The position numbers were made by a program, and so were the translations under genes. Below, piece after piece: positions 24,106-57,401 of a stretch of 64,000 nt of DNA. Location of the stretch: IMG/VR virus record IMGVR_UViG_3300008954_002609, positions 40,468 to 104,467 of that record, one strand, 5' to 3'. This stretch comes from a virus. Each line of letters starts with the position of its first letter. The first letter of the stretch is position 1. Below the pieces are notes generated by a model. That model did not search any database. It saw only the letters and a list, made by a program, of their open reading frames with translations, and had not been told where the DNA came from.

Positions 24106-24134
24106 AACGTCAGTAATTAGTCGACTACGGCATT

Positions 24135-25692: not shown

Positions 25693-26529
25693 TTATACAA
25701 CCGCACGACCCTTGAGGTTTTCCCAATCTTTTTCTGGTCGTACTTCTAAATTTGTCTGCCATGCTGCCTTGATAACATTCGCATTGACTCCGCATTGGCC
25801 GGCGAAGGCAATAAATGCGTTAATGTCCTTTGGAAAGCAGCTGCCTCCGAATCCCCATTTCCCGTCTGGTCCTGGAACGTTCAAGTGCGAATCCCCAACT
25901 CTTCCATCTGCTGCAAATCCAGCAAGTGCCAAGTCCCAATCCACGTTTGCTTTTTCACAAACTAGCTTCATTTCATTCGCAAAAGCAACCTTGACTGAGA
26001 AGAACACATTGTTAAAATATTTTATAAATTCAGCAGTATTGAAATCTGTCTTCATTATATTACAGTGCTTGAACCTCGTCCTATAAAGTTCCGCGACCTT
26101 GCTTGTGTTCTCCGGAGAGCCCCCCAGGACTATCCTAGCCTGATTTAAGAAATCATATTTCGCATGTCTCTCTGTTAAGAATTCAGGATTAAAAACAAGA
26201 TTTAAATTTGGAAACTCATCCGAGAAAGACTGAGTGGTTCCGGGGACTATTGTGGACTTAATTACCACTACATTATCGTTTCTATCACTAACATTGCTTA
26301 TATCCCCCAACACCTCTCTCACTATACCAAGATTTATGGACCCATCTTTGTTCATCGGGGTTGGCACAGAAACGAAAATTATATCAGACTCATTAACCGT
26401 TTCCTCTAGTGAATTCATGCTCCTAAGAGGGTCCTTATCGTGAACCAATACCGGGATTACGGGAACAAAACCAAAGCCTATTGCTTGCCCCACGAATCCA
26501 TTTCCAATAATACCTACTGCCTTAATCAT
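25693..26529 (-). CDS. Truncated UDP-glucose/UDP-ManNAc dehydrogenase-like protein
   Basis: A 278-residue protein from ATG 26529 (a TTG at 26535 is less likely). It has a Rossmann motif GIIGNGFVGQAIG (residues 6-18), the VSVPTP segment (53-58), FNPEFL (113-118) and the catalytic Cys231 in GFGGSCFPKD. The family oxidises the C6 hydroxyl of a UDP-sugar to an acid with two NAD. Normal members have 390-450 residues; here the C-terminal UDP-binding domain is missing and the protein stops soon after the central dimerisation helix. It may use another substrate or need a partner. It is the last gene of the glycan cluster and overlaps the end of the epimerase gene. Confidence 0.85.
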   Translation of the reverse strand: MIKAVGIIGNGFVGQAIGFGFVPVIPVLVHDKDPLRSMNSLEETVNESDIIFVSVPTPMNKDGSINLGIVREVLGDISNVSDRNDNVVVIKSTIVPGTTQSFSDEFPNLNLVFNPEFLTERHAKYDFLNQARIVLGGSPENTSKVAELYRTRFKHCNIMKTDFNTAEFIKYFNNVFFSVKVAFANEMKLVCEKANVDWDLALAGFAADGRVGDSHLNVPGPDGKWGFGGSCFPKDINAFIAFAGQCGVNANVIKAAWQTNLEVRPEKDWENLKGRAVV

Positions 26530-27364
26530 TCGCAAACTCCAAAAAACACTCTCTTATTCCCTCAGATATCTCCACTTGAGGTCTCCACCCCAAATCAAGC
26601 AAAGGCTTCACATTTGCCTTAGTCAACCTGACATCTCCTGGGCGCTCTTCAACATAATCAAACTTTAAATCTGGCAGTGTCTCTTTTACCAGCTTCTTCA
26701 TTTCGTTTAGGGAAATATTGTTTCCAGTTCCGACATCGTAAACATTGCCAGAAACAGAATCCATATTGTTCATACAGAAGATGTTCGCAGATACGACATC
26801 ACTGACATGTGCCATGTCCCTCCTCTGATCTCCGTCTCCCGTTATATACGGGATCTTCCCATCTTTTATAAACCTTCTCCAATTAGCAACACATGTGGCG
26901 TATGGCCCATCAGCGACCTGGTCCACCGAATATACATTAAAGTACCTTAATGCGACGGTATCTACATCATAAAGCCTTTTATATAGCAAGGTTTCGACTT
27001 CTCCAACATGTTTGGACAGCGCATACGGGCTTTCTGGTCCAGATCCGTTACCTACCACGGACGACGAGCTAGAATATACCACTTTAGCTCCTACTTTTTT
27101 TGCAAATTCCAAAACAAGAGACGTAGAGTGAACGTTGTTGTGCATAACTTCCACTGGGTTCTCAATGCTATAAACTACTCTTGGGATCGCTGCCAAATGG
27201 AAGATGACTTCTGGTTTAAAAGCCAGGTGCTTTTCCTGGAACCCGTCCAAGATGTCTTCTCCCATCTTGAGATCTATTCCCATAACATTGTGACCCAAAG
27301 AGTTAAGTTTCCAAAACAAATTCTGACCAATGTATCCCATGTGACCAGTCACCATCACGTTCAT
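26522..27364 (-). CDS. NAD-dependent sugar epimerase/dehydratase (extended SDR)
   Basis: A 280-residue extended short-chain dehydrogenase with the NAD motif GHMGYIG (residues 7-13), acidic Asp31 at the end of beta-2, a Ser-rich catalytic strand, and the YxxxK pair Tyr114/Lys118 in SPYALSKH. ALRYFNVYS and the GDQRRDMAHVSDV segment are typical of UDP-glucose 4-epimerase-like enzymes acting on nucleotide sugars. It overlaps the downstream dehydrogenase and the upstream sulfotransferase (TAATG), so it is part of the same operon. The exact sugar cannot be read from the sequence. Confidence 0.9.
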   Translation of the reverse strand: MNVMVTGHMGYIGQNLFWKLNSLGHNVMGIDLKMGEDILDGFQEKHLAFKPEVIFHLAAIPRVVYSIENPVEVMHNNVHSTSLVLEFAKKVGAKVVYSSSSSVVGNGSGPESPYALSKHVGEVETLLYKRLYDVDTVALRYFNVYSVDQVADGPYATCVANWRRFIKDGKIPYITGDGDQRRDMAHVSDVVSANIFCMNNMDSVSGNVYDVGTGNNISLNEMKKLVKETLPDLKFDYVEERPGDVRLTKANVKPLLDLGWRPQVEISEGIRECFLEFAND

Positions 27365-28044
27365 TAAATGTACCCCGAAATCTTTAACTGGTTCTCAAAA
27401 TCTCCCAGTTCTTCATCAGTACAAATATTTTTATATGCGTTGACATCCTTGCCAATGCCCTTGTCACTCAACTTTCTTTTTCCATAATCTGAATCATTTC
27501 CTTTTCCAGCCCTGGCAAGAACAGAGACATTCCAATCATAAACCCAGTCTTTTACAAACTCAGGATAATCAGAAAAGTGATTTGCCTTTTGGATACCAAA
27601 AACATTGCAAATGTTGTCTTGTACGCAATTTGGATTCCTTATAAGGTCCTCGTATTTGACCTCAAGGTCTATAATATCCGAGTATTCGTTCCTTTGTTTC
27701 ATGGAATCTATCCATCTCTTAGGCTTAACATAATTTCCATCTGACAAGATCACGTCTCTTCCGTCCCTTGTCACGTTGATAATTCCGATGTCCTGCTTTC
27801 TTATCCAAGACAATTGGTCTTCGAATTCTGGTGTTTCAGAATTACTCAACACAAAGGGAGGTAGCCTCTTTCCTATCAAAAACCTCTTGTCCGTCTTGAT
27901 GTTCAAGAACTCACTCAGTGTCATTTCATGACCGTTAAATCCTTTTCTATAGAGAACGTCAGTGCTTTGAAACGCATAACACATTCTCAACAAAAGAGTC
28001 GTCCCACTCTTGGCGCATCCTGTAATAAATATTCTCTTTGTCAT
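27364..28044 (-). CDS. Sulfotransferase (PAPS-dependent type)
   Basis: A 226-residue protein with the sulfotransferase 5'-phosphosulfate loop near the N-terminus, GCAKSGTTLLLRM (residues 9-21), and a 3'-phosphate-binding region with INVTRDGRDVILS (about residues 89-101). Such enzymes move sulfate from PAPS to sugars or other acceptors. It is shorter than typical sulfotransferases (about 250-300 residues). In this cluster the acceptor is most likely the glycan. A second, different sulfotransferase lies at 34288-35196. PAPS would have to come from the host, since no PAPS synthesis gene is seen here. Confidence 0.8.
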   Translation of the reverse strand: MTKRIFITGCAKSGTTLLLRMCYAFQSTDVLYRKGFNGHEMTLSEFLNIKTDKRFLIGKRLPPFVLSNSETPEFEDQLSWIRKQDIGIINVTRDGRDVILSDGNYVKPKRWIDSMKQRNEYSDIIDLEVKYEDLIRNPNCVQDNICNVFGIQKANHFSDYPEFVKDWVYDWNVSVLARAGKGNDSDYGKRKLSDKGIGKDVNAYKNICTDEELGDFENQLKISGYI

Positions 28045-28047
28045 CTA

Positions 28048-28665
28048 CTATACTTCCCACGTCTTATATTCTGGTTGCTTGGTTTTATTGGTGTCATGCA
28101 TTCTGTATCTGTAAAATGGAACTCTCAAATGGTGAATTCGATATTTGTCGCCCAAGCGTTTTCTTAGTTCCTCTTCCTCCCTATGTCTCATCTTTGGATT
28201 ATATCCACCTAGCGATAAGAACAGGTCTCTTCGATACATTATACCACAGGATATGTTTTCATTTTCAGCATATTTTCTTTCAATGGTGTTCTCATAATCA
28301 TCCACCATCAAGTAGTCCGAAGATACACAAAATGCGTCATGGTTAGACTCTAGATATTTCTTCATAACAAACGACATATCTTTGTTAATATAATCATCGG
28401 CGTCGACTCTAAAGAAGAACTGACCTCTGGCATTTTCAATTCCTAAGTTAGACGCTACTGCTACTCCGGAATTCTTGTCCGTCTTGAGGAATCTTATGCG
28501 ATCAGCGAAGGGTCTCAGCATATCTTGCGAGTTGTCTGTACTACAGTCATCCACCACTATCACCTCAAATCTGACCCTCTCCTGATTAAGACAACTCCTC
28601 AAACACCTAGAGACATATTTGCCATAGTTGTAGTTTGTTATAATTATCGATACGTCAGGTACCAT
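28048..28665 (-). CDS. Glycosyltransferase family 2
   Basis: A 205-residue GT-A enzyme. VSIIITNYNYGKYVSRCL at the N-terminus and VIVVDDCSTDNS (residues 36-47) are the GT2 nucleotide-sugar-binding segments; the DxD metal motif is in FRVDADDYIN (Asp88-Asp90). RHREEEELRKR near residue 160 supplies the acidic catalytic base region. Compact compared with many GT2 proteins, but complete for the catalytic core. It transfers a sugar from a nucleotide donor in the cytoplasm. It starts at the stop of the NeuB-like gene, so translation is coupled. Confidence 0.9.
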   Translation of the reverse strand: MVPDVSIIITNYNYGKYVSRCLRSCLNQERVRFEVIVVDDCSTDNSQDMLRPFADRIRFLKTDKNSGVAVASNLGIENARGQFFFRVDADDYINKDMSFVMKKYLESNHDAFCVSSDYLMVDDYENTIERKYAENENISCGIMYRRDLFLSLGGYNPKMRHREEEELRKRLGDKYRIHHLRVPFYRYRMHDTNKTKQPEYKTWEV

Positions 28666-29378
28666 TATTCTTTCCTCCGATTTAATATTTCGATTTCCTT
28701 GATTAGGTTTTTAAACTGTTTAAGAGATCCGTGATCAAAAGACCCCAAGTGCCCTCCCTCAAACCTTGATTGTGCAAAAATGTTCTCACTATAATGCTTC
28801 TCTAATATGGTAGCACCGCTGAAATATGCTTTCAATGGGGCGGCGATGCCGACGGAGTGGTCACTATATCCGCGATACCCATATCTCTTAAATTCTTTTG
28901 GCATATTTTTCAAGTTATCATCGTGCAAAAAAGTTGGATACCTGGATACACAAAATAAGTAAGATATCTTCTCACTGTGTCCGAATGGAAATTCACCAAT
29001 AGCACATTGTCCGGTGGATATGATTGTCGGTTTATTCTCTTTTAAGATAGCTTCGCATAAATCTGGATCTTCTTTTACGGTTCTACTTGCTATCTTGTGC
29101 CTATCAAATCCGAGGTTCCGCAGCCAATCCAATCTCTCTTTATCAAAGGGTGTAGCCATCAGTGGTATACCAAGATTATCACAAAAGTCCTTGAGGGATG
29201 CAAGTGTTTGGTAGTCGATGTCCCTGTATTCTCTTTCAGTGTTTCCAAAAAATGCCACAGAATCCATTAACTGAACTTTCACAACATCTGCTCCTGCGGA
29301 CCATGCATTTAGTGACATTCTTTTTAGTTCTTCCAGCGAGCCATGGTGCTGGTTACAAAGATCAACTATTATTTCCAT
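28665..29378 (-). CDS. NeuB-like nonulosonic acid synthase, without SAF domain
   Basis: A 237-residue TIM-barrel protein of the NeuB family, which condenses phosphoenolpyruvate with a 6-carbon sugar such as ManNAc to give a sialic-acid-type sugar. Visible family motifs are KVQ (34-36), ATPFD (75-79), KIAS (95-98) and ISTGQC (120-125), plus YSDHSVG and LEKHYS near the C-terminus. Normal NeuB has about 340 residues with a C-terminal antifreeze-like (SAF) domain covering the active site; that domain is absent. The CMP-transferase, deacetylase and formyltransferase genes are immediate neighbours, supporting a nonulosonate route. A related PEP-aldolase activity is also possible. Confidence 0.82.
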   Translation of the reverse strand: MEIIVDLCNQHHGSLEELKRMSLNAWSAGADVVKVQLMDSVAFFGNTEREYRDIDYQTLASLKDFCDNLGIPLMATPFDKERLDWLRNLGFDRHKIASRTVKEDPDLCEAILKENKPTIISTGQCAIGEFPFGHSEKISYLFCVSRYPTFLHDDNLKNMPKEFKRYGYRGYSDHSVGIAAPLKAYFSGATILEKHYSENIFAQSRFEGGHLGSFDHGSLKQFKNLIKEIEILNRRKE

Positions 29379-30069
29379 TTAAATACTCCTTCAATAAAAT
29401 TGGAGTCTTGTATGATATCTCCAACATTCTTCCATAATTCATGTCTTTTAATTGATATAGTTTCCCGCCTGGTTCTACGTGATAAGGCTCTACTGAATTA
29501 TTGATTATATTATACACGTTTTTCTCCAAAATGTCAAACCCTGTAATGCAAGTTCTCATGAAAATATCTTCTGGTGTGTCAGAGATATCCATCCCTTCTG
29601 TTTTAGATTGAGCTATTACCCTACCCTTGTCAATTGACGAGTTTATATAGTGAATAGTTGCCCCTATCTCTTCCGGTTTTCCCTCGTAGAGAGCCCAATA
29701 CGGGCTGTCTACCCCTCTGTGGTGCTGTACTAAGCCCGTATGTATGTTTATACAGCCTCCGGAAGGTACACTAAAGATGTGCTTTTTGAGTAGAGGGGCA
29801 CCGAAGACAAAACAAAGGTCAGGAGAAACCTCTGATATCATATCCTTCATCCTTCTAGAATTTACTTGTTCTGGAGTGCACATAACTAAATTTCCTAGTA
29901 TCTCGCTACCTCTTGCGTGTCCAAAAAATCTTCGCTCTGATAGGCAGAATTTCGCATTTCCGGGCTTTTTATCCACTACAATGACCATAGAAAGATCGAC
30001 ATACTTCTGCAATCTAGATATGAACTCCCTGTGCCTCAGTTGGTTTGATGTTATTGCGATGTGGCTCAT
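29362..30069 (-). CDS. Sugar N-formyltransferase-like protein
   Basis: A 235-residue member of the methionyl-tRNA formyltransferase/GART fold. The catalytic triad seems present: Asn108 and His110 in INIHTG, HHRGVDSPYWAL (116-127), and Asp147 in SSIDKGRVI. These enzymes move a formyl group from 10-formyltetrahydrofolate to an amine. The substrate is probably an amino sugar rather than Met-tRNA, because the gene sits between a PIG-L deacetylase, which can expose an amine, and NeuB. The C-terminal OB domain of true Fmt is missing. It overlaps neighbours on both sides (ATGA and 17 bases). Confidence 0.8.
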   Translation of the reverse strand: MSHIAITSNQLRHREFISRLQKYVDLSMVIVVDKKPGNAKFCLSERRFFGHARGSEILGNLVMCTPEQVNSRRMKDMISEVSPDLCFVFGAPLLKKHIFSVPSGGCINIHTGLVQHHRGVDSPYWALYEGKPEEIGATIHYINSSIDKGRVIAQSKTEGMDISDTPEDIFMRTCITGFDILEKNVYNIINNSVEPYHVEPGGKLYQLKDMNYGRMLEISYKTPILLKEYLNGNNS

Positions 30070-30749
30070 AACTTTATTGGGCTTCTCCCCAGGCTCTTAA
30101 ACGCCTCTCCTCGGGCTTCACCTATTGAATACCCCCTCACTTTCGTAATTCCATCCAGGTACCTCTCTATTTCATTTAAAATATCGAGCTGAGACATATA
30201 TACCTTCAACGCTTCCATCTTCAATCCGTATTGCTCAGTAATATCGACAACGTAATCAGGATCATCAAAAGGATCCAAAATTTCAAAAGACCATATGGCC
30301 CCAACAGTGTGTACTCCACCTAACTCCTCCATTATGTTTTCCGAAGCTTTCCAGCAGGCTTCTTCTACAATCGCAGAAGTCCTCTTATGATCTCTGTGTT
30401 TGCACACTTGATTGTGTGTTATGACCAGGTCTGGCTTCACCTCTCTTATGATTTTTATAACTTTGTGAAAATTTTGCTTCCTATTAGAGACCTTCTGACA
30501 AGGTAGACCGAGGTTGTGAATCTTTTGAATGCCCAAGATCTTTGCTGCAATAATTGCTTCTTTGTTTCTTGTTTCTACGATTTCAGAACCATCAGTACCT
30601 TGTTTAATACCAGTGGAGCCGTCGGTCATAAAACAAACTTCTACCCGGCAGCCCCTGTCTGCCCACTTCCTTATGGTGCCGCCGCAGCCAATTGTCTCAT
30701 CGTCCTGATGTGCTGCGAAAACTAGAACTTTTTTAGGTATTTTGATCAC
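30066..30749 (-). CDS. PIG-L/LmbE-family N-deacetylase
   Basis: A 227-residue zinc-dependent deacetylase. AAHQDDETIGCGG at residues 12-24 supplies the AHxDD zinc/catalytic motif, and CKHRDHKRTS (near residue 120) the second His pair. The family removes acetyl groups from N-acetylglucosamine derivatives and similar sugars. Together with the formyltransferase immediately downstream (ATGA overlap), it suggests an acetyl-to-formyl swap on an amino sugar. It starts inside the end of the NeuA-like gene (17-base overlap). Confidence 0.88.
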   Translation of the reverse strand: MIKIPKKVLVFAAHQDDETIGCGGTIRKWADRGCRVEVCFMTDGSTGIKQGTDGSEIVETRNKEAIIAAKILGIQKIHNLGLPCQKVSNRKQNFHKVIKIIREVKPDLVITHNQVCKHRDHKRTSAIVEEACWKASENIMEELGGVHTVGAIWSFEILDPFDDPDYVVDITEQYGLKMEALKVYMSQLDILNEIERYLDGITKVRGYSIGEARGEAFKSLGRSPIKL

Positions 30750-31362
30750 TTCTTTTCTCTATAAACTTTACATCTTCAATAGTGTGAACGTCATGCACAT
30801 CGCAAATAAAGGCTCCCGTTTTCACACTCAAATCTCTCTGGTGAACGTACCATAGTTTCATTATTCTAAATGCTGCATTCATCATTAAATCTCTGTCTAC
30901 GCTCATCAACTCATTTCTATCATTAATAATGAACGACTCGATTGCATTATCCAATGTTCTTCCTGTAATTTCAGGAGAATTTGCTTGCAGGGAGACGACA
31001 GTCTCTGGCTTAAAATGATTTCTCTCTATATAAGAACAAGCCTCTCTAATTGCCTCCATCTTGTAGACGTGGTCTGCCGCTGTTCTTGGATCCCTGTCGT
31101 GGACATTTGCACCATACTTAATTGCTATTTTTTTTATCTCTTCATCTTCTGTGGTTACCCACACGTCGGTTATATATTCACTGTCCTTTGCTGCCTTTAT
31201 CGCCCAAGATAACATAGGCTTGCCCCAAATGGGATAAATGTTCTTGCGCTTGAGCCTTTTAGACCCTCCCCGTGCAGGTATGATGGCTACTATTCTTTCT
31301 TTTTTAGTCTTATTGCTTGCGCCAATCAGGTCAGATAAGCCCGTCATTAATGACTCTATCAT
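30733..31362 (-). CDS. CMP-nonulosonate cytidylyltransferase, NeuA-like
   Basis: A 209-residue nucleotidyltransferase. I chose ATG 31362 because it forms a classic ATGA overlap with the upstream stop; a start at 31419 would only add shadow sequence. The CMP-NeuAc synthetase signature IIPARGGSKRLKRKN is at residues 27-41, followed by VWVTTEDEEI and VVSLQANSPEI, the CTP and metal-binding parts. It activates sialic-acid-like sugars with CTP. With NeuB three genes downstream, it forms the core of a CMP-nonulosonate pathway. Other members activate KDO, which remains an alternative. Confidence 0.88.
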   Translation of the reverse strand: MIESLMTGLSDLIGASNKTKKERIVAIIPARGGSKRLKRKNIYPIWGKPMLSWAIKAAKDSEYITDVWVTTEDEEIKKIAIKYGANVHDRDPRTAADHVYKMEAIREACSYIERNHFKPETVVSLQANSPEITGRTLDNAIESFIINDRNELMSVDRDLMMNAAFRIMKLWYVHQRDLSVKTGAFICDVHDVHTIEDVKFIEKRSDQNT

Positions 31363-31949
31363 GGCGGGAACCCTTTCGTGTGATGGGGTTTTCCGTATTT
31401 CTTGAGATTTGCCATCCATTTGGCTTTAGGTCTCAGCACTGCTATACCACCAACCTCTTCAACTAGATCATACCACTCTAAAGCAGCCTTATATCTAGGT
31501 CTGTAGTATTCACACAGAAAAACAATTGTGTCTTTGTGGGAGTACCTTGTAGCCATCTCGCAACATTGCACTCTCGCTCGACCATCGATAATGAAAAAAT
31601 CATACTTTTTTTTACCAAAATGATCAATAGCCTTTATATAACTTTTAAACTCTTCGTTCCTATTGTCTAAAAGAATAGAGTGTCCTCTTTCCCAAATATT
31701 CCACGGAATATCTGCAGGAGCATAGTAGAGTTTCACATTCTTTATCTCCTGCTCCTGAATCATGTCTGCAACCTTATCTGCCCACTTGTCGTCGTGTTCT
31801 ACCGAGTTGTAACTCTTTACAAATTTAGAAAAATGAATAGTGCTGCCGCCTGGTCCCCATTCGAACAGTGTTTTGCCTTTTGACAAACGACTTTCAATAT
31901 AGTCAATCTCTTCCTGATTCATTAGTGGCTTATTTTTTATATTTTTCAT
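31359..31949 (-). CDS. Class I methyltransferase-like protein
   Basis: A 196-residue protein. LFEWGPGGSTIHFSKF (about residues 28-43) resembles the glycine-rich SAM-binding loop of class I methyltransferases, followed by an acidic strand end in YNSVEHDDKW, and FFIIDGRAR as the motif after strand 4. It could methylate a sugar of the cluster. Some related proteins have lost methylation activity, so the function is uncertain. It is five bases from the upstream GT-B-like gene and ends in the ATGA overlap with the NeuA-like gene. Confidence 0.6.
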   Translation of the reverse strand: MKNIKNKPLMNQEEIDYIESRLSKGKTLFEWGPGGSTIHFSKFVKSYNSVEHDDKWADKVADMIQEQEIKNVKLYYAPADIPWNIWERGHSILLDNRNEEFKSYIKAIDHFGKKKYDFFIIDGRARVQCCEMATRYSHKDTIVFLCEYYRPRYKAALEWYDLVEEVGGIAVLRPKAKWMANLKKYGKPHHTKGFPP

Positions 31950-31954
31950 ACTTG

Positions 31955-32965
31955 CTATACTAACACATCAAGTAAATTTTTGCAAGTATCTTTACTGTCG
32001 AACAAATAATCTTTTCTTGCTTTTCGGAATTCAGGATCCAAATCCGTTAAATTTAGGTAGGTAATCGCTGCTGCAAATTCAGCATGAGTGAACTTTTTGT
32101 TCATATCAACACAATAACCATACCTATATAGATAATCATGAGTCACCCTATAAGGTCTCTTGCTTCCGTTTCTAAATTCTGGCTTTATGTCAAAATTAAT
32201 TAATGGCACATTGTGCATCACACACTCTTCTACAGTTGTTGATCCAAAATTTATTGCTATGTCGCTTATCGATAACAATTCCTGGGTTGTATGAGGGTAC
32301 CAAGAATCGTCTAAGAAACAATAGTGACCGTTTGATTTAAGTGCTTGTTTCCAGGTAGAACTAACTGGGTCTTTTCCTCGACTTTTAAACAAAACTGTAT
32401 AGCCCATCATATCCAAACAGGCCATCAGGTTCGGAAAGTCTACATGTGCTTGGTCTCTTCCTTTAGGAGATATGAGTGTCGCAAACTTACCGTCTTTCGG
32501 CAAAGAGTATTTATTAAGAACACTTGATTTGTCGATTTCAATATCATATTTTGGTATCCCCAAATAAAGATTTTTATCCGTATGGAGATTATAATAATCT
32601 GCTATCGACCGACTAGGCATAAGCACATGATCTGCAACATCTATATAGTGTTTGTAACTTTCAATGAAGTCTGTTTGATAAGTGCAGACAACCTTCTTTG
32701 TATCCTTTGCTTTAGCAACAAAATTTACACCTGTTTTTTCATTTGAAAACAAGAGACCCTTTGCAGATTTTACATCTGCTATATCCTTAAATAATACGTT
32801 GTGATGAATGACAAGTTGCGCCAATACTGATTCATACTTGTGAGGACAATTATATTTGTGGGATGGTGCAATGTAAAAAACAGATTGAATACCCCTCTTG
32901 TTCCCCTCTATCACTAGTGGCATCCAGTACCTAAGATGCGTCATTTCCATTAACAAAAAATTCAT
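31955..32965 (-). CDS. GT-B type transferase (CDP-glycerol transferase/epimerase-like fold)
   Basis: A 336-residue protein with a two-Rossmann GT-B plan. The second half has FATLISPKGRDQAHVDFPNL, HTTQELLSISDIAINFGST and TVEECVMHNVPLINFD, the pattern seen in CDP-glycerol glycerophosphotransferase-like and UDP-GlcNAc 2-epimerase-like proteins (phosphate-binding Ser/Thr and a conserved Glu in EE). Either a sugar/polyol-phosphate transferase or an epimerase is possible. If it were a 2-epimerase it could supply ManNAc-type substrate for the NeuB-like enzyme nearby. Start ATG overlaps the next stop (ATGA). Confidence 0.6.
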   Translation of the reverse strand: MNFLLMEMTHLRYWMPLVIEGNKRGIQSVFYIAPSHKYNCPHKYESVLAQLVIHHNVLFKDIADVKSAKGLLFSNEKTGVNFVAKAKDTKKVVCTYQTDFIESYKHYIDVADHVLMPSRSIADYYNLHTDKNLYLGIPKYDIEIDKSSVLNKYSLPKDGKFATLISPKGRDQAHVDFPNLMACLDMMGYTVLFKSRGKDPVSSTWKQALKSNGHYCFLDDSWYPHTTQELLSISDIAINFGSTTVEECVMHNVPLINFDIKPEFRNGSKRPYRVTHDYLYRYGYCVDMNKKFTHAEFAAAITYLNLTDLDPEFRKARKDYLFDSKDTCKNLLDVLV

Positions 32966-37806: not shown

Positions 37807-37868
37807 ACTAATACCTCTCCTTTTCTAAAATTTCTTGTATATTTGCGCCCACAGCATGAACTATCTTT

Positions 37869-39355: not shown

Positions 39356-39374
39356 TCAAAAAACCTCCTATAAC

Positions 39375-43524: not shown

Positions 43525-43525
43525 C

Positions 43526-44333: not shown

Positions 44334-45115
44334 TTAACGTCCTCCAATGATACCACGTAATTGCCAAACTTTTTAACCGAAATTGCAGCACACTTGTTTG
44401 CAAATTCTATTGCGATGGGAAAGGAAAAGAAGGACATGTATGCTGTAACAAATGCTGCCAGGAATGTGTCTCCTGCCCCACAAACATCAAAAACCTTGGC
44501 AGGTTCTGTTTCAAATTCTCGTCCGCGCCAAGATGCGCCGCGAGAACCCAAAGTTACAATCATTTCAGAATTGATAGGTTGCTTTTCTATTTTTGAAAAT
44601 TCTAGTTCGTTTAACTTGATTATACAATCTTCATAACATGATAAATCTGTCTTTTTTGAATCAACAAAGATTACACAATTTTCCCCCCTCAGAGAGTCAA
44701 TGATCTTGTTACAATTCTTATTACAGATGAACCCCTTATCATAATCTGATATTACTACACAATCATACTCAAATCCTGATTTTTTTACCGTTTCTATGAG
44801 GCTCTCGCTCATCGGGGGAAGCCTATTTGCCTCACCTGCATCTACCCTAAGAAGGTGCTGCATTGTCTTTTCATCGACAAACCTCTCCTTTATTATTTCT
44901 TTTGTATTGGTCAGGACTCTCGTATCGTGCCCAAAAGACTCCAGATTCCTCTGAACATTCAATACCATGCCAGGCTTATCCTCAATGCGTGAGGTTTTAA
45001 GCACTGGAACAGGCGCTTCTGGGCTTATCCTGTCGCAAGTTCCATAGTTATACCTGTCTATGCAGGAGTCACCTATTATCAATATCTTGAATGATTTGAG
45101 TTGTTGAATATCCAT
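44330..45115 (-). CDS. Heptose-7-phosphate kinase-like (RfaE domain I, PfkB fold)
   Basis: A 261-residue PfkB-family kinase. ILIIGDSCIDRYNYGTCDRISPEAP (split at residues 12-36) matches the N-terminal half of HldE/RfaE, and VFDVCGAGDTFLAAF is the PfkB signature with the catalytic Asp. The glycine pair of the usual PGGAANVA segment is changed to PGMVLNVQ. It is shorter than the HldE kinase domain (about 315 residues). It phosphorylates heptose 7-phosphate at C1 in ADP-heptose synthesis. The adenylyltransferase gene overlaps its start by 47 bases in another frame; both ends look genuine. Confidence 0.85.
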   Translation of the reverse strand: MDIQQLKSFKILIIGDSCIDRYNYGTCDRISPEAPVPVLKTSRIEDKPGMVLNVQRNLESFGHDTRVLTNTKEIIKERFVDEKTMQHLLRVDAGEANRLPPMSESLIETVKKSGFEYDCVVISDYDKGFICNKNCNKIIDSLRGENCVIFVDSKKTDLSCYEDCIIKLNELEFSKIEKQPINSEMIVTLGSRGASWRGREFETEPAKVFDVCGAGDTFLAAFVTAYMSFFSFPIAIEFANKCAAISVKKFGNYVVSLEDVK

Positions 45116-45467
45116 CTAAATAATTAAAGATTATCACCGAATTACACAAGTCTTTTCCAATTACTTGATCTTCGGTATAGTCTCCACCCTTTACAATAAT
45201 GTCAGGCTTTATTTTTTTTACTAACTCTAGCGGAGTATCTTCGTCAAAAATAATTACTTTATCAACATATCTACATGACTCCAGTAAAAATTTTCTATCT
45301 TTTTGTGAAAAGATTGGTCTTGACGATCCCTTGAGCCTTCTAACGCTAACATCACTGTTCAGTCCGACAATCACCCTTCCATATGCCTTACAAAATTTTA
45401 ATAATTCTATATGACCTCGGTGGACAATATCGAAGCATCCGTTAGTAAAGATTTTCTTTTTAGCCAT
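45069..45467 (-). CDS. Heptose-1-phosphate adenylyltransferase-like (RfaE domain II)
   Basis: A 132-residue nucleotidyltransferase. FTNGCFDIVHRGHIELL contains the GCFDxxHxGH cytidylyltransferase-fold motif (residues 10-19), VGLNSDVSVRRLKG and EDTPLELVKKIKPDIIVKGG match RfaE domain II closely, and GYSTTQII is the family C-terminus. It would join ATP and heptose 1-phosphate to ADP-heptose. In E. coli it is fused behind the kinase; here it is a separate gene and precedes the kinase. Its last 47 bases also encode the start of that kinase. Confidence 0.9.
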   Translation of the reverse strand: MAKKKIFTNGCFDIVHRGHIELLKFCKAYGRVIVGLNSDVSVRRLKGSSRPIFSQKDRKFLLESCRYVDKVIIFDEDTPLELVKKIKPDIIVKGGDYTEDQVIGKDLCNSVIIFNYLDGYSTTQIIQDIDNR

Positions 45468-45474
45468 GAATGCA

Positions 45475-46308
45475 TTATAACAGAGTATCTAGTACTTTGT
45501 CAACTATTTCTTTTTCATTGTGATTGTTTACTTCAGATGCGCACTCTTCGCATTTTATCTTAAGTCCGCATGGTTCGTGATTTCCAATATTTATATTAAT
45601 ATTCTGAGGATATGCAACCATGTCCTCAGACTGGTACCCTGTTATTATCACTAGCGACTTCGTATCTACAGTCGTGGCCGCGTGAACAAGACCACCTTCG
45701 GTACTGAGGAACATTTCAGATTCTCCTATAAGAATCGCCGCTTCTCTGAAAGATGTTTTACCCCTGTAATCGATTACGTTTTCTAAGAGTGGGCTCGACG
45801 TGCTTCCTATTTGCACAATCTGTATATGGTCCTTCAACACATTCACTATACTTTGCCACTTACTTAGTGGGTATGCTCTGTTTGGTGTGTAGTTTGTTTT
45901 TGAATAAGGTTCTATAGTTACAAATCTATCCCCTAGTTTATCTGTGAGGTCTTTTACTTTCTCTCTTTCTCGATCAGTAAAGAACATTTCACATCTAAGT
46001 TCTGGATCTTCTATTCCGTAGACTTCGCACATTTGTTCGATTATATGCTTGTCTTTCCTGTGGTAGGCTTTTATTGGTGTGTCTGTTTTGCAATAATTCG
46101 CTTCCGGGTTATTCATAAACATCGGAAACGCCTCATCTCCATCTCCAGTTTTGTATATATTTGGATTATTTTCAAACACTGGGCTTCTGATAAGTTTTGT
46201 TACGTTTTTGCCGTCTCCTTCGCATGGAAGGACTTTGACTTTCTCTGGTAGCTTCTTCTTTAACTCTCTTGCTACTGCTGTCCAGGCAAGATAACCTCCT
46301 AAGCCCAT
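45475..46308 (-). CDS. Glycosyltransferase family 9 (heptosyltransferase-like)
   Basis: A 277-residue GT-B protein. The second half shows FVTIEPYSKTNYTPNRAYPL, IVQIGSTSSPLLENVIDYRG and EMFLSTEGGLVHAATTVDTKSLVIITG, the pattern of ADP-heptose:LPS heptosyltransferases (GT9), with the glycine-rich EGG motif. It is shorter than bacterial heptosyltransferases because part of the first Rossmann domain is reduced. Genes for ADP-heptose synthesis stand immediately downstream, so a heptose transfer is expected. AGGATT precedes the ATG. Confidence 0.82.
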   Translation of the reverse strand: MGLGGYLAWTAVARELKKKLPEKVKVLPCEGDGKNVTKLIRSPVFENNPNIYKTGDGDEAFPMFMNNPEANYCKTDTPIKAYHRKDKHIIEQMCEVYGIEDPELRCEMFFTDREREKVKDLTDKLGDRFVTIEPYSKTNYTPNRAYPLSKWQSIVNVLKDHIQIVQIGSTSSPLLENVIDYRGKTSFREAAILIGESEMFLSTEGGLVHAATTVDTKSLVIITGYQSEDMVAYPQNININIGNHEPCGLKIKCEECASEVNNHNEKEIVDKVLDTLL

Positions 46309-46312
46309 AATC

Positions 46313-47284
46313 CTACTCGCAATACTTTATCATTAAATCATACGCATCATTTGCATATCTCTCGTATCCGGCGTGTTGCAGTATATATTCTCTAGGCGAC
46401 AATGGCATAGGAATCTCTCCACCTAGAAACTGCTTTATCTTCTCGATATAAGGCTGGGCAGAGTCATCATTTCTTTTTAGATACTTTTCTGTCATTCTAT
46501 CAGTTCCGTGAACCCAAAAATTCTGATCAAATATGCTGGGCGTATTATGAGGAGATCCGATTACTGGCACATCTAAAAACATGGCTTCATAAGTCGCTAT
46601 TCCTGGACACTCATCTAAGCTAAGGTTGATGCAACATTTTGACTTCAATAAGGCATCAAAATATTCTTCTCTTTTATAGTCTCCGTAAGTTAGTTCAATA
46701 TAGGATATCTCGTTGTTTTCAAGACCTTCGATTATACCATCATGAAAATTAAAATAATTATCATCATATCTTCGCCTCTTCGAGTAGACAAGGCAATCAT
46801 ATTCTATATTCTTATTGTTTATCAAATCTGGGTCAATATCGAAGGTTACACATTTATCTAGAAAATCAGCTCTGTGTACCTGGTCTTTTGGTAAGAATTT
46901 CTTTACATGATCGTTATAATACTTAACTTGGTCAATGTATAGATCGAACTCAACATTCTCAACAAACCACTTGTCCCACGAGTCAGCAGGACCAATGTCT
47001 GGATAATCTAATAAAACATTCGGTCCAAAAACAAACTTCTTTTTTGGAAATGCTTTTTTCAAATTAGCATAAAGATTGGGATCAAAACCCTTCGCATAAA
47101 ACCAGAAAACGTCAGTCCGATTAATGTCATAGTTTTCTTTAAGCTTCCAAAGCTCTTTCACATCAAATCTATCATGTTTATCTTGATTGAGTGCGTCCAC
47201 ATGATGGCTAAAAGTCAGCCCAGGGCCGCGGTCGCCCCCAGGTCGAGAGCACATTAGAATATTAAACTTCTTATAGGTAGTCAC
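46313..47284 (-). CDS. Glycosyltransferase-like protein (GT-B)
   Basis: A 323-residue protein. ILMCSRPGGDRGPGLTFSHHVDAL at the start (split near residue 20) and, in the second half, YDCLVYSKRRRYDDN, FDALLKSKCCINLSLDE and PGIATYEAMFLDVPVIGSPHN fit the GT-B acceptor and donor halves, with the Glu of TYEAM in the usual EX7E place. The donor is unknown. It overlaps the GT2 gene upstream by 14 bases. Confidence 0.75.
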   Translation of the reverse strand: MTTYKKFNILMCSRPGGDRGPGLTFSHHVDALNQDKHDRFDVKELWKLKENYDINRTDVFWFYAKGFDPNLYANLKKAFPKKKFVFGPNVLLDYPDIGPADSWDKWFVENVEFDLYIDQVKYYNDHVKKFLPKDQVHRADFLDKCVTFDIDPDLINNKNIEYDCLVYSKRRRYDDNYFNFHDGIIEGLENNEISYIELTYGDYKREEYFDALLKSKCCINLSLDECPGIATYEAMFLDVPVIGSPHNTPSIFDQNFWVHGTDRMTEKYLKRNDDSAQPYIEKIKQFLGGEIPMPLSPREYILQHAGYERYANDAYDLMIKYCE

Positions 47285-48041
47285 TTATTGGAAGCTCCTT
47301 TAGCCTCGCATGTGGCTTCTTTTGTTTCAACTCCGCCTCTATGCGTAACTGGTCTGCCCTATGCACTCTGTCCACTGCTAGAGGATTCTCCCTATTGTAT
47401 ACATAAGTGATTCTCTTAACTGGGTGAAAGTGATTTGGTCCTGCCATCTCTACCATGGGATACATTATCACCCGGTCCCACGTAAATTTATAAAAGTCAC
47501 CATCACTATCCAGCATGTCTTCTTTGTTGATGCTCATAAACAATTCTTTTCTGAATGTCCTTAGATGAGAGAGCGTCCACTCCTTGTGTCTTATGTTCCC
47601 TTCCCAATAATCGTCCGTAACTTTGGGTCTTACAATTTTGCCACCTACCGACTCGATATAGGATCCTGCAGTTATCCAAACTTTTGGATTTTGATATATT
47701 TCATTTAAGTGTTGGAGAACATACCTGTTTGCTAGCCAGTCATCGCCATCTAGAGCCAGTATTATAGATCCAGGCTTTGCACAGTCCACCGCTTGATATA
47801 AGTTGGTCAAAGCCCTTACATTTTGTCGGTTATGTTGTATTGTCAACTGACCGGGTCTCGACTCCCTGAATTCTTGAAATAGAGCGTCTGCACGCTGACC
47901 AGTCATATCAGAAGATGCATCGTTTATGAACCGAATATCATAATTCCCATAATCCTGCTTTATAGCTGAGTTTATATTCTTCTCTACCCACGACTCATTG
48001 TTATAGGACAAGATAACTATTGTGAAGTGATTTTCTATCAA
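47271..48041 (-). CDS. Glycosyltransferase family 2
   Basis: A 256-residue GT2 enzyme. I prefer TTG 48041 as start: GGGAG stands eight bases before it and it overlaps the TGA of the upstream gene; a further TTG at 48056 would give five more residues. FTIVILSYNNESWVEKNI and IRFINDASSDMTGQ are the donor-binding segments, and LALDGDDWLANRY holds the DxD-type metal motif. DRVIMYPMVEM gives the acidic catalytic area. A complete GT-A core. Confidence 0.88.
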   Translation of the reverse strand: MIENHFTIVILSYNNESWVEKNINSAIKQDYGNYDIRFINDASSDMTGQRADALFQEFRESRPGQLTIQHNRQNVRALTNLYQAVDCAKPGSIILALDGDDWLANRYVLQHLNEIYQNPKVWITAGSYIESVGGKIVRPKVTDDYWEGNIRHKEWTLSHLRTFRKELFMSINKEDMLDSDGDFYKFTWDRVIMYPMVEMAGPNHFHPVKRITYVYNRENPLAVDRVHRADQLRIEAELKQKKPHARLKELPISDYL

Positions 48042-50128
48042 AATGCATTCTCCCAAAAATACGAAGGTCTAGATTTTAGATATTCAACAACTTCTTTATA
48101 GTCCTTATTGAACCATTCCTCGTCGCGGTGTTGCACATTATCGTTAATCTCCAATTGACAACCAAGAAGCTTTGCCTCAATTACCAACCTTGGACAAGTA
48201 TCTAAGCCGCCGGGCTTGAAACACAATCCACGGGATAAGGAAAGTTTCTTTAGAAATTCCATAGGTTCTACTCCCCACAAAACTTCGTATTCATAACTCT
48301 TCTCTTTGCACCAGTCCTCTGATTCTTGTGCGCCCTTGACCCAACTATCTGACCCTAAGACGACCCATTTGCTGCTTCTCTTCTTCTTTGATTCTTCTCT
48401 AAGGTTGTCAATCAATTCAAAGAAATTCTCAGAAAAAAGAGAAGACAGTACATGCAAGTTTTCAGTATTAGACAAATCTAGAGATTCTATGTGTATCTTC
48501 TTCTGATTCTCTGACATAAAGAACACAGATTTTGCGTTCTCTGCAAAATCTTTTAATCTCTTTCCCTGTTCTGTGCTGGAGTATTCGCACTTTTCTCCCT
48601 CGACCATCTCGTAAAGAGTTGGATTCCTGTGTTTGCAAAACTTATAATCAAACTCAATAAATGAATATTCTATATTTAGTTTTTTTATTGCCTCAAAGGC
48701 TTCTGGTTTCATATTCGCGATATTACCAAAAACCCATTTTGCATCTTTGTGATCTGTCAACAACTCTTCAGTAAGCATTTGAGAATTGACTGCTCCTAAT
48801 TTGTCAGAAGGAGCAGACTCAATTATGGTTTGAAGACTCATTTCCGCGCCTCCAGCATACTGACTAGCGAACATATCGCTGACATAGATGTATTCTGGGG
48901 GGTGTAAAATATTTTCCGGAAGAACAGCTTCTAGCATTCTACTTTGGATCTTTTCTTCTGAAAAGTTTTCTAGTACATGCTTTTGTAGCTTCTTAGCCCA
49001 AGACAAGTACATCCCATGATTGGTATACATCGCTCTTATTTTCTTTTTAAAGTCAACCTTGTTTGGGTAGCACCACATAGTACCTTCATGTATGATGTTT
49101 TTCCAAACAGCTTCCTTTGGAATAGGAGCTAGAACATAATCAACACGAGCAAATAATGGCTTCCTCTTTGTCTTTCCCTTCTTATTTCTAACAGGTGCAT
49201 ACAAGAAATCCAAATGGCCGCTCCAACCTGGCGCAACTACTGGGAGCCCGTTACAGGCTGCTTCGAATAGAGGAAGTCCATATCCTTCACCGTGTGTTGC
49301 GCTAATTATCGCTTTAATCTTCGGATGAGTATATAGTGAATTTAATTCTTCTCGGGTCATATCGCCGTGAAGGAAGTATATTTTGCACTTTCTATCTTGA
49401 AACTCTTTCTGACTCAATAGCATTTCAAGATTGCGTTGTGTCATTCGTCGGTCCATTATAGAATTCTTTGAGGTATTTGTTTTCACGACCAAACCAACTT
49501 CTTGATTCTTAAATTCGTCAACAAACCACCTTATCGTGTTTTCGAGGTTCTTTCTCACAGACCATTGAGCTATTACCAAAAAGTTGAATTCTGTATCAAC
49601 TTCTAAATTAAAATCTTCATCTTTGTCCAGACTGCCCACTGGGTAATGAACCACGTCGATTGGCGCTCCGCAACCCAATATTTTCTTTTCACCTTCTTCG
49701 TTCTGGAATTCATACTTGGAGTTTTCAAACCCCCACTTTGCGAATTCCGATGGGACAACAATCTTATTCATGGTATAGCTCTTCTCTATCCATGCTGGAG
49801 CTACCTTTGTTGTTTCTATTCCTGCGGTGACGGTGACTGCATAGGGAGCCAGTCTGTTAAACTCGTTAGGTATTCCCACTCTGATATGGAAATCAAAATT
49901 CCTCTGATCTTCAGGTAGAGATGTGAGTTTATGCATCAATTGATCCATCCACTCTCTTTCTTCTGTGTCGCCTAATAACCAAGAGGTTGTTCCCCAATTT
50001 AAGGGAGACAGATAAATGTCTAGAAGATCGTCCCTCTTTCTGAGTGACCTCAACACCAATCTCGTATGTTCCCCGTATCCCGACTGAGTGAGAGCGGGTC
50101 CCTCTACTATAACTTTATATTTCTTCAT
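48038..50128 (-). CDS. Two-domain glycosyltransferase (GT4-like)
   Basis: A 696-residue protein starting at ATG 50128, chosen for its ATGA overlap with the upstream stop and the GGAG seven bases before it. Residues 1-410 are a full GT4 enzyme (GPALTQSGYGEHTRLVL; FLVIAQWSVRKNLENTIRWF; SATHGEGYGLPLFEAACNG followed by LPVVAP). Residues about 420-696 form a second GT-like region (VSDMFASQYAGGAEMSLQTI; LCFKPGGLDTCPRLVIEAK), in which the donor site is degenerate. It may add two sugars in sequence or use the second part for acceptor binding. Confidence 0.85.
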   Translation of the reverse strand: MKKYKVIVEGPALTQSGYGEHTRLVLRSLRKRDDLLDIYLSPLNWGTTSWLLGDTEEREWMDQLMHKLTSLPEDQRNFDFHIRVGIPNEFNRLAPYAVTVTAGIETTKVAPAWIEKSYTMNKIVVPSEFAKWGFENSKYEFQNEEGEKKILGCGAPIDVVHYPVGSLDKDEDFNLEVDTEFNFLVIAQWSVRKNLENTIRWFVDEFKNQEVGLVVKTNTSKNSIMDRRMTQRNLEMLLSQKEFQDRKCKIYFLHGDMTREELNSLYTHPKIKAIISATHGEGYGLPLFEAACNGLPVVAPGWSGHLDFLYAPVRNKKGKTKRKPLFARVDYVLAPIPKEAVWKNIIHEGTMWCYPNKVDFKKKIRAMYTNHGMYLSWAKKLQKHVLENFSEEKIQSRMLEAVLPENILHPPEYIYVSDMFASQYAGGAEMSLQTIIESAPSDKLGAVNSQMLTEELLTDHKDAKWVFGNIANMKPEAFEAIKKLNIEYSFIEFDYKFCKHRNPTLYEMVEGEKCEYSSTEQGKRLKDFAENAKSVFFMSENQKKIHIESLDLSNTENLHVLSSLFSENFFELIDNLREESKKKRSSKWVVLGSDSWVKGAQESEDWCKEKSYEYEVLWGVEPMEFLKKLSLSRGLCFKPGGLDTCPRLVIEAKLLGCQLEINDNVQHRDEEWFNKDYKEVVEYLKSRPSYFWENAF

Positions 50129-51390
50129 TTTATCTCCACCATCTTCCACCCTTTGTGCTTTCTATTCGACCAAGAGCCGCCCTCTTCGTGAATCTTGGTG
50201 AGGGTTTCATCCCACAAATTTACATAACTTTCAAAGCCGTAATTATCGAGGACATGCTTTCTTGCCTTTTTGCCCATCTCTGCTCTCTCTTCTTTTGTCA
50301 TGTTATACATCTTCTCTAGTGCATTGATGAAATCATCCTTGGAGATCCTATCCTCATAAATATATGGAACCTGCTGAGAACCTATTATTGACTTGGAAAC
50401 AGGTTCAATGCCGGTGCCGAACCATTCTTTCCCATCTGTCACCTGTTCTTGCAAACCACCAGTCATATTTACAATGATTGGAACCTCACAAGCTAAAGAT
50501 TCGAGAGTCGCTAGACCAAAACCCTCTGCATCTGAAATATTTATCGTGCAATCGCAAACATTGTATATCATAGACAAATCGCGGGCTGGCATCTTGTTTA
50601 CTGATAAGAGCACTTCTCCGTTGTTTAGACCTCTTTCCGCCATGATTGCTTCTAGGTCTTGCCCATTCGGATCTTTTGGTTCCGTGTGCATAATGAGACA
50701 AGCATTTTCTCTACCAATACGATCCAAAAACTCGGAAAACCACCAAATAAGTGTACCTGATTGTTTTCTTCTTGCATTTCTATTGTTCCAAAAGAATAAA
50801 AATTTCTTTTCGCCATTTTTCTTGTAGGCTAGCTTGTTCTTTTTCCTAAAATCATCGGCTAATTCGTCTGGAACCTTTTTATATATTTCTGTATTTGCTG
50901 TGTGTGGGATTCTAACCCTAGGTACGCTCGGTGCCACCTTTGAAACGATATCGTCGGTCACCTTGCTTATCGTTGCTATAAAGTCGTTTGATTCATAGAA
51001 AGGTCGATTGAACATCGGAGGGGGATAATTGTCCCAAACATGATAATATACCAAAGGAACAACCGATCTTACTTCGTTCTCTATCTCCCATAGCCAGGGC
51101 CAGAAGCGCGGGTCTGTCATTATCCACATAATGTCTGGCTTTTCTGTTTGAAGTAGCGTTCTTACCTTATCTTGTGTTCCGTATCCATCTACTGGATAGA
51201 TAACCCAGTCGTCTTCGTATCCCTGTATCTTAATCGGGTCGTAACTGGGGTGTTTTATTGCTCCACCAAAACAAACAAACTGAAACCTACCAGTCCTAAG
51301 CAACCCTTCAATCATGTATCTTGTCTGTCCTGCTACACCGGAGGGTGCCAGTGGGTTGTCCGCCAAGACAAAGACCTTAATCTTTTTCAT
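50125..51390 (-). CDS. Glycosyltransferase family 4
   Basis: A 421-residue GT4 enzyme, the first gene of the glycan cluster in the direction of transcription. FVLADNPLAPSGVAGQTRYM is the N-terminal GT-B loop, FLFFWNNRNARRKQSG the linker to the donor domain, and NISDAEGFGLATLESLACEV plus PIIVNMTGG the donor site with its E-x7-E pair. Length is typical. It is 13 bases downstream of the nuclease gene, so no separate promoter space is visible. Confidence 0.92.
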   Translation of the reverse strand: MKKIKVFVLADNPLAPSGVAGQTRYMIEGLLRTGRFQFVCFGGAIKHPSYDPIKIQGYEDDWVIYPVDGYGTQDKVRTLLQTEKPDIMWIMTDPRFWPWLWEIENEVRSVVPLVYYHVWDNYPPPMFNRPFYESNDFIATISKVTDDIVSKVAPSVPRVRIPHTANTEIYKKVPDELADDFRKKNKLAYKKNGEKKFLFFWNNRNARRKQSGTLIWWFSEFLDRIGRENACLIMHTEPKDPNGQDLEAIMAERGLNNGEVLLSVNKMPARDLSMIYNVCDCTINISDAEGFGLATLESLACEVPIIVNMTGGLQEQVTDGKEWFGTGIEPVSKSIIGSQQVPYIYEDRISKDDFINALEKMYNMTKEERAEMGKKARKHVLDNYGFESYVNLWDETLTKIHEEGGSWSNRKHKGWKMVEIK

Positions 51391-54955: not shown

Positions 54956-54992
54956 TGTAATTACTCTCTTTCCTTATATAGTAATTAGATCT

Positions 54993-57377: not shown

Positions 57378-57401
57378 ACACCTTCCTTTTAAAAAAAATA
57401 G

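What the first reader, a model, noticed from the sequence alone, without database searches (positions are those of the whole stretch)
25693..51390. A 31-gene glycan factory in a phage genome
The block holds nearly all enzyme types needed to make and decorate a complex surface glycan: nine glycosyltransferases plus heptose, nonulosonate, formyl, acetyl, methyl, sulfate and carbamoyl chemistry. LPS-type gene clusters are known in some marine T4-like phages, but one of this size and chemical variety is unusual. There is no flippase, polymerase or export gene, suggesting that the sugar is attached in the cytoplasm, e.g. to virion proteins, or fed into host pathways.
Basis: partly seen in the sequence, partly recalled or inferred. 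Interest (0 to 1): 0.75.

Follow-up and report, generated by a model that had tools for sequence, protein, structure and literature searches.

The report
Swappable sugar-coat locus in marine phages
A marine virus of bacteria carries a 26-kb block of 31 sugar-building genes, and its relatives carry a different block at exactly the same place between the same fixed genes, so it looks like a viral counterpart of the bacterial serotype loci and probably sugar-coats the virus particle.

Summary
The block is real: 31 same-strand ORFs at 25693-51390 in a 104-kb fragment of a T4-like (probably Far-T4-like) marine phage. Most inventory claims hold; no acetyltransferase was found, and one of the nine glycosyltransferases is ambiguous.

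The main new result is comparative. In all 23 relatives read across the whole locus, a 13-28 kb cassette of 13-31 genes sits in a constant frame: exonuclease, GT4c, GT4b, variable genes, three small genes, late sigma factor. Only the pair GT4c/GT4b is in all 24 cassettes; 146 families were counted and 72 occur in one cassette. Phages 83% identical in the sigma gene can share 6% of cassette families. Cultured Flavobacterium and Microcystis phages begin the same way; Rhodothermus phage RM378 has the pair alone.

The missing flippase is a rule: 0 of 533 cassette proteins are polytopic, and no flippase, polymerase, initiating transferase or integrase was found in the genomes searched.

Best explanation (about 0.55): stepwise cytoplasmic glycosylation of a virion protein, a viral serotype locus. 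Host LPS-core remodelling (0.25) is not excluded; DNA glycosylation is unlikely. No glycan or acceptor has been demonstrated. New variant of a known kind.

The parts
51404..52357 (-). Constant left border: PD-(D/E)XK-type exonuclease
   Evidence: PHROG 69, E 8e-23; directly upstream of GT4c in 23/23 relatives apart from an occasional small inserted ORF and within two ORFs in 76/76 loci
50125..51390 (-). GT4c: constant GT-B glycosyltransferase
   Evidence: PHROG 2170 E 3e-22; profile matches chlorovirus glycosyltransferase B736L (3OY2) full length, E 1e-15; present in all 24 cassettes
48038..50149 (-). GT4b: constant glycosyltransferase, 703 aa with a C-terminal half that is a separate gene in some relatives
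   Evidence: Pfam Glycos_transf_1 E 6e-5, below cut-off, PHROG 2170 E 2e-12; within two ORFs downstream of GT4c in 71/71 loci
47271..48056 (-). GT2-family glycosyltransferase
   Evidence: Pfam E 5e-16
46313..47284 (-). Probable GT-B glycosyltransferase
   Evidence: Weak PHROG 4356; AlphaFold model pLDDT 70 matches glycosyltransferases, Foldseek E 1e-7 but TM 0.36
45475..46308 (-). GT9 (heptosyltransferase-family) glycosyltransferase
   Evidence: Pfam E 7e-7, over cut-off
45069..45467 (-). HldE C-domain-like heptose-1-phosphate adenylyltransferase
   Evidence: TIGR02199 E 3e-46, below curated cut-off
44330..45115 (-). HldE N-domain-like heptose-7-phosphate kinase (PfkB)
   Evidence: TIGR02198 E 2e-49, below curated cut-off
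44016..44333 (-). EcbF/BcbF-type HAD phosphatase
   Evidence: TIGR01689 E 2e-14, below curated cut-off
43526..44035 (-). Cupin (sugar isomerase-like)
   Evidence: Pfam Cupin_2 E 1e-7
42802..43524 (-). Unassigned, 240 aa
   Evidence: No Pfam or PHROG hit; a 33% relative in one other cassette
41180..42805 (-). O-carbamoyltransferase (NodU/TobZ type)
   Evidence: Pfam Carbam_trans_C E 8e-62 and N E 2e-17
40232..41179 (-). NDP-sugar epimerase/dehydratase
   Evidence: Pfam Epimerase E 1e-37
39375..40274 (-). FkbM methyltransferase
   Evidence: Pfam E 3e-6
38798..39355 (-). GDSL esterase
   Evidence: Pfam E 5e-23
37869..38831 (-). Sugar N-formyltransferase-like (ArnA-like)
   Evidence: Pfam Formyl_trans_N and _C; NCBIfam ArnA E 9e-36, below cut-off
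37027..37806 (-). Methyltransferase (Methyltransf_24)
   Evidence: Pfam E 9e-13
36104..37030 (-). GT2-family glycosyltransferase
   Evidence: Pfam E 3e-17
35184..36152 (-). GT4-family glycosyltransferase
   Evidence: Pfam E 2e-7
34288..35196 (-). Sulfotransferase-like
   Evidence: Pfam Sulfotransfer_3 E 1e-4, below cut-off
33591..34298 (-). DUF2334, polysaccharide deacetylase-like
   Evidence: Pfam E 2e-10; deacetylase assignment is inference
32962..33591 (-). Unassigned, 209 aa
   Evidence: No Pfam or PHROG hit; relatives in four other cassettes
31955..32965 (-). GT-B fold protein: glycosyltransferase, TagF-like transferase or NeuC-like epimerase
   Evidence: Model pLDDT 87; Foldseek BshA, TagF, NeuC, E 2e-9 to 4e-7, TM up to 0.68
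31359..31949 (-). Unassigned, possibly methyltransferase, 196 aa
   Evidence: No family hit; methyltransferase is a guess
30733..31419 (-). NeuA/PseF-type cytidylyltransferase
   Evidence: Pfam CTP_transf_3 E 3e-23; TIGR03584 E 1e-27, below curated cut-off
30066..30749 (-). PIG-L-type N-deacetylase
   Evidence: Pfam E 5e-31
29362..30069 (-). N-formyltransferase (short)
   Evidence: Pfam E 5e-15
28665..29378 (-). NeuB/PseI-type nonulosonate synthase, shorter than the solved enzymes
   Evidence: Pfam E 2e-33; PDB profile 6NCS, 8H2C
28048..28665 (-). GT2-family glycosyltransferase
   Evidence: Pfam E 4e-31
27364..28044 (-). Sulfotransferase
   Evidence: Pfam Sulfotransfer_3 E 2e-7, over cut-off
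26522..27364 (-). NDP-sugar epimerase
   Evidence: Pfam E 1e-38
25693..26535 (-). UDP-glucose/GDP-mannose dehydrogenase, compact form without C-terminal domain
   Evidence: Pfam N and central domains, E about 1e-23
25398..25667 (-). Constant right border, small protein s89
   Evidence: Homologue called in 20 loci
25150..25395 (-). Constant right border, FmdB-like small protein s81
   Evidence: PHROG 1076 E 3e-4; homologue called in 22 loci
24811..25146 (-). Constant right border, small protein s111 with one predicted TM segment
24135..24848 (-). Constant right border, gp55-like late sigma factor
   Evidence: PHROG 234 E 3e-7; at the same place in the relatives
53615..54955 (-). PhoH-like ATPase, first gene of the presumed transcription unit
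   Evidence: tblastn PhoH
54982..54988 (-). CTAATTA, candidate late-type promoter about 30 nt before phoH
   Evidence: Most frequent intergenic 7-mer on the coding strand; CTA[AT]TTA in the stretch before phoH in 15/20 related loci

Best explanation
The block is the local allele of a fixed-site, polymorphic glycan locus of a lineage of marine Far-T4-like phages: a viral counterpart of bacterial O-antigen/capsule loci, but without any export machinery. A constant pair of cytoplasmic glycosyltransferases (GT4c, GT4b) starts or builds a common glycan stem. The exchangeable cassette then supplies activated sugars (here probably a heptose, an N-formylated or de-N-acetylated nonulosonate and a uronate, made from host precursors) plus further glycosyltransferases and O-/N-modifying enzymes that extend and cap it. 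Because no lipid-linked, flippase or polymerase step is encoded, sugars are most likely added one by one in the cytoplasm to a phage protein that is then built into the virion, giving each phage its own surface 'serotype'. Shown: gene content, fixed frame, constant pair, cassette turnover, absence of membrane steps. Inferred: the glycan, its sugars, the virion acceptor, the surface role and the timing of expression.
For: Fixed frame with variable interior in 23/23 relatives read whole; exonuclease before GT4c in 76/76 and GT4b after it in 71/71 loci of a second, partly overlapping set. Only GT4c and GT4b are in all 24 cassettes; 146 families, 72 single-cassette; sigma identity 83% with 6% shared families against 55% with 46%. 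A cassette-free form, exo-GT4c-GT4b-s89-s81-s111-sigma, exists (L066), and RM378 has the pair without a cassette. Other cassettes sampled also encode sugar chemistry: GT2, GT4, GT15, GT47, DegT aminotransferase, methyltransferases. 533 cassette proteins with no polytopic one (control). No flippase, initiating transferase, polymerase/ligase or integrase family. GT4c's best solved-structure match, full length, is a chlorovirus glycosyltransferase; chlorovirus capsid glycans have a conserved core and virus-specific decorations (PMC9614988). Candidate late-type promoter before phoH in this and many related phages.
Against: No acceptor is identified and no glycan has been seen. B736L's own acceptor is unknown (PMC9614988), and B736L also turns up as an HHpred match of DNA glucosyltransferases (PMC6024577), so that match is only a lead. 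Cytoplasmic glycosyltransferases could instead extend the LPS core before export, and HldE/GT9 enzymes are typical of LPS. The promoter motif is unproven. The window contig is a fragment (no DNA polymerase was noticed in it), so its own missing genes cannot be excluded, although near-complete relatives agree.
Confidence: 0.55

Rival explanations
1. Host-surface remodelling: the enzymes act on nascent LPS core or another surface glycolipid in the infected cell, using the host's exporters, to exclude competing phages or stop progeny from re-adsorbing to debris.
For: ADP-heptose and GT9 enzymes are LPS-type; this is the published reading for glycosyltransferases in the hypervariable host-recognition cluster of pelagimyophages (PMC7029224); tail-side genes lie next door; the cultured carriers found here infect hosts generally regarded as Gram-negative.
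Against: No lipid-linked step, flippase, polymerase or ligase in any of 24 cassettes; no integrase, so no lysogenic conversion; a 13-31 gene investment for remodelling a cell about to lyse seems costly (inference).
Confidence: 0.25
2. DNA hypermodification: the glycosyltransferases and modifying enzymes decorate phage DNA against restriction.
For: T4-like phages glycosylate hydroxymethylcytosine; B736L is an HHpred match of DNA glucosyltransferases (PMC6024577).
Against: No thymidylate synthase/dCMP hydroxymethylase family protein in this contig or ten related records, with a control that rings. The Tet/JBP search was also negative but its control did not ring, so it is uninformative. Nonulosonate, sulfate and carbamoyl chemistry together on DNA would be unprecedented to my knowledge.
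Confidence: 0.05
3. Recent capture of a host polysaccharide locus without a settled phage function.
For: Bacterial homologues of individual genes exist, for example a short NeuB next to a GT2.
Against: Best bacterial identities are only about 37-46%; no bacterial block was found in the sampled phyla; GT4c in a bacterial and archaeal genome collection was found only in five loci, most of them evident phage pieces binned in MAGs; cassette GC follows the phage's own flanks, r 0.82; open frames are maintained.
Confidence: 0.05
4. The glycan is attached to a host cytoplasmic protein or secreted as infected-cell exopolysaccharide.
For: Cytoplasmic enzymes would suit a cytoplasmic acceptor.
Against: Exopolysaccharide would need a synthase or export protein, and none was found; no candidate host acceptor.
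Confidence: 0.1

Closest known systems
Host recognition cluster of pelagimyophages and cyanomyophages (PMC7029224)
   Same: Hypervariable island in marine T4-like phages carrying several glycosyltransferases; rfaE and UDP-glucose dehydrogenase genes are reported in these phages.
   Different: There the island lies between VrlC and gp14 and mixes tail fibres with sugar genes; here the cassette holds no recognised tail-fibre gene, is framed by exonuclease-GT4c-GT4b and the late sigma, and keeps a constant glycosyltransferase pair.
LPS-type gene clusters of cyanophages such as P-SSM2 (from memory)
   Same: Large sets of LPS-type genes in T4-like marine phages.
   Different: Different lineage; not compared here.
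Bacterial O-antigen/capsule loci, for example E. coli between galF and gnd
   Same: Constant flanking genes with exchangeable glycan cassettes.
   Different: Bacterial loci of this type encode flippase and polymerase; none here.
Chlorovirus capsid glycosylation (PMC9614988)
   Same: Virus-encoded, mostly soluble glycosyltransferases; conserved core glycan with virus-specific decorations; GT4c's best PDB match is a chlorovirus enzyme.
   Different: Eukaryotic viruses, genes not described as one exchangeable cassette, acceptor (Vp54) known; the functional parallel is inference.
Far-T4 phages (PMC4360716), Flavobacterium phage immuto, Microcystis phage Mel-JY01, Rhodothermus phage RM378
   Same: Related phages; the three isolates carry the GT4c-GT4b pair, two of them preceded by the exonuclease.
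   Different: The Far-T4 paper text holds no mention of glycosyltransferases or LPS; membership was not tested by a tree.

Membership tests
Wzx/Wzy- or ABC-type surface polysaccharide locus | Flippase, polymerase or exporter (polytopic membrane proteins) | tested here: not met
   0 of 533 cassette proteins polytopic (control); PF01943, PF02397 and PF04932 absent
O-antigen-like polymorphic locus (organisation only) | Constant flanks with exchangeable interior independent of core relatedness | tested here: met
Phage virion glycosylation system | Glycan covalently attached to a virion protein | not testable with these tools
   Needs glycoproteomics
Phage virion glycosylation system | Phage-encoded cytoplasmic glycosyltransferases | tested here: met
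Pelagimyophage host recognition cluster | Located between VrlC and gp14 and containing tail fibre genes | tested here: not met
   Lies between exonuclease and gp55-like sigma; the families named inside are sugar enzymes; tail-side genes lie beyond sigma
DNA hypermodification cluster | Enzyme making hydroxymethylated bases | tested here: not met
   PF00303 absent in 11 records with ringing control; PF12851 uninformative
Far-T4 phage lineage | T4-like core proteins grouping with Far-T4 references | tested here: inconclusive
   Terminase nearest to Mel-JY01 and immuto at 42-43%, GT4c also in RM378, phoH near structural genes; no tree was built

The most novel reading that the evidence does not exclude
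A lytic phage lineage carries a true viral serotype locus: a constant glycosyltransferase pair plus exchangeable cassettes that build different glycans on the virion, with cassettes swapped between phages independently of their core genomes.
Probability: 0.5. Interest if true: 0.8.

Novelty: new variant of a known kind. Interest (0 to 1): 0.6.

Why it matters
If right, some of the sea's large phages vary their surface sugars through cassette exchange much as bacteria vary O-antigens. That would turn 'what are LPS genes doing in phages' into a testable question, because the locus has a fixed address, a constant enzyme pair, a natural cassette-free form and cultured carriers. It also offers a large store of export-independent glycosylation enzymes.

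Tried and rejected
DNA modification: no thymidylate synthase-family protein; Tet/JBP negative but without a ringing control. Recent host capture: bacterial matches too distant and not in the same block in the sampled genomes. Lysogenic conversion: no integrase. T4 late promoter TATAAATA: not above chance; CTA[AT]TTA found instead. PDB profile search with GT4b: no match. Model of 46313-47284: only moderate confidence. Literature searches for a description of this locus found none in the held library, but subscription papers are mostly missing.
Full report
What is there. The window is bases 40468-104467 of a 104,467-base viral contig. At 25693-51390 lie 31 tightly packed ORFs on the minus strand. 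Pfam and NCBIfam assign most of them to sugar-nucleotide enzymes, glycosyltransferases and glycan-decorating enzymes; GT4c was assigned by PHROG and PDB profile. The exceptions: 'acetyl' chemistry is deacetylase/esterase-like only, and of nine claimed glycosyltransferases seven have family support, one has a GT-B-like fold at moderate model confidence, and one (31955-32965) has a confident GT-B fold that fits a TagF-type transferase or NeuC-type epimerase as well. Three further ORFs remain unassigned. Several NCBIfam hits lie below their curated cut-offs, so exact substrates are not established.

The phage. Baseplate wedge proteins, a gp55-like sigma factor, a phoH gene and a terminase mark it as T4-like. 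The terminase is 42-43% identical to its nearest isolates, Microcystis phage Mel-JY01 and Flavobacterium phage immuto, and GT4c also has a relative in Rhodothermus phage RM378. This fits the Far-T4 group (PMC4360716), whose paper also notes phoH near the structural genes, but I built no tree. Near-complete relatives are 185-193 kb, so the window contig is a fragment.

The locus is a fixed frame with a variable interior. I fetched 23 relatives across the whole locus. All show exonuclease, GT4c, GT4b, variable genes, small genes s89/s81/s111 (one or another of which was not called in some loci) and the late sigma factor. Cassettes span 13.1-27.7 kb with 13-31 genes; the window has 25.7 kb and 31. 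In a second set of 80 GT4c loci, the exonuclease lies within two ORFs upstream in all 76 testable cases and GT4b within two downstream in all 71; this set overlaps partly with the first. At least 571 viral contigs hold GT4c. One relative, L066, has the frame with no cassette. The cultured phages immuto and Mel-JY01 begin their clusters in the same way, with one gene inserted between exonuclease and GT4c in each; RM378 has the pair and no cassette (its GT4b match is weak, E 9e-9).

Cassettes are exchanged. Clustering 533 proteins gives 146 families; only GT4c and GT4b are in all 24 cassettes, and 72 families are in one cassette only. G008 and G012 are 83% identical in the sigma factor but share 6% of cassette families, whereas G019 and G021 are 55% identical and share 46% (families at 40% identity). 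Pfam scans of proteins from two other cassettes found GT2, GT4, GT15, GT47, aminotransferase, oxidoreductase, methyltransferase, LicD-like and radical-SAM proteins, some with non-sugar assignments such as ketopantoate hydroxymethyltransferase and a TPP enzyme. Cassette GC follows flank GC across phages (r 0.82), which argues for long residence in phages.

No membrane step. A hydropathy predictor found 516 proteins with no, 16 with one and one with two segments; the same predictor finds 9 in E. coli flippases, 6 and 8 in polymerases and 4 in WcaJ. Family searches for Polysacc_synt, Bac_transf and Wzy_C were negative with ringing controls. No integrase was found.

Mechanism. Shown: the content, the frame, the constant pair, the exchange and the lack of a membrane step. 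Inferred: the constant pair builds a common stem; the cassette makes special sugars and adds them; the acceptor is cytoplasmic at the time. A virion protein fits best. GT4c's best solved relative is a chlorovirus glycosyltransferase (E 1e-15, full length), and chlorovirus capsid glycans have a conserved core with virus-specific decorations. This is only a lead, because that enzyme's acceptor is unknown and it is also an HHpred match of DNA glucosyltransferases. LPS-core remodelling remains a serious rival, and is the published reading for glycosyltransferases in pelagimyophages. DNA modification is weakened by the absence of a hydroxymethylase family.

Timing. CTAATTA is the most frequent intergenic 7-mer on the coding strand and precedes several structural genes. 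It precedes phoH here, and CTA[AT]TTA lies in the stretch before phoH in 15 of 20 related loci, though sometimes some 70 bases away. No intergenic copy lies in the cassette. The cluster may therefore be read through from phoH. This is a hypothesis.

Origin. In 398 genomes of one phylum the best NeuB is 39% identical, with no shared block beyond an adjacent GT2; carbamoyltransferase matches in 395 genomes of another are 33-46%. GT4c in the genome collection appears only in five loci from MAGs, most of them evident phage pieces. The host is unknown.

Verdict. The block is not an oddity of one phage but an allele of a widespread, export-free, exchangeable glycan locus. Glycan islands in marine T4-like phages are known, so this is a new variant of a known kind; its fixed frame and constant pair are what I found no description of in the held literature.

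Noticed in passing
window 57401-57475 (-) and 57489-58100 (-): ARAGORN calls tRNA-Met(CAT), but its acceptor stem (GGACCTC, with C4 and C5) and the neighbouring PP-loop TilS-like gene (Pfam ATP_bind_3, E 3e-33) suggest tRNA-Ile2(CAU) with its own lysidine synthetase.
   Followed up: partly
window 60394, 61077, 62008, 62742 (starts, minus strand): Four proteins begin MKLIMENW or MKLIMEGW, a repeated N-terminus with an (I/L)xE motif like T4 prohead-protease sites (from memory): candidate capsid-targeting sequences of internal head proteins.
   Followed up: partly
contig-wide; e.g. window 54982-54988 and 24114-24120: CTA[AT]TTA is a candidate late promoter of this phage group in place of T4's TATAAATA.
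   Followed up: partly
window 63128-63523 (-): Complete IscU/NifU-type iron-sulfur scaffold protein (Pfam NifU_N, E 2e-52).
   Followed up: no
window 55299-56090 (+): The one clear plus-strand gene in this part of the window: a trypsin-like peptidase with an N-terminal hydrophobic stretch.
   Followed up: no
L235 (CP070664.1, WOR-3 bacterium MAG chromosome): A phoH-exonuclease-GT4c phage segment next to runs of N inside a MAG 'chromosome': probably a mis-scaffolded phage contig.
   Followed up: partly
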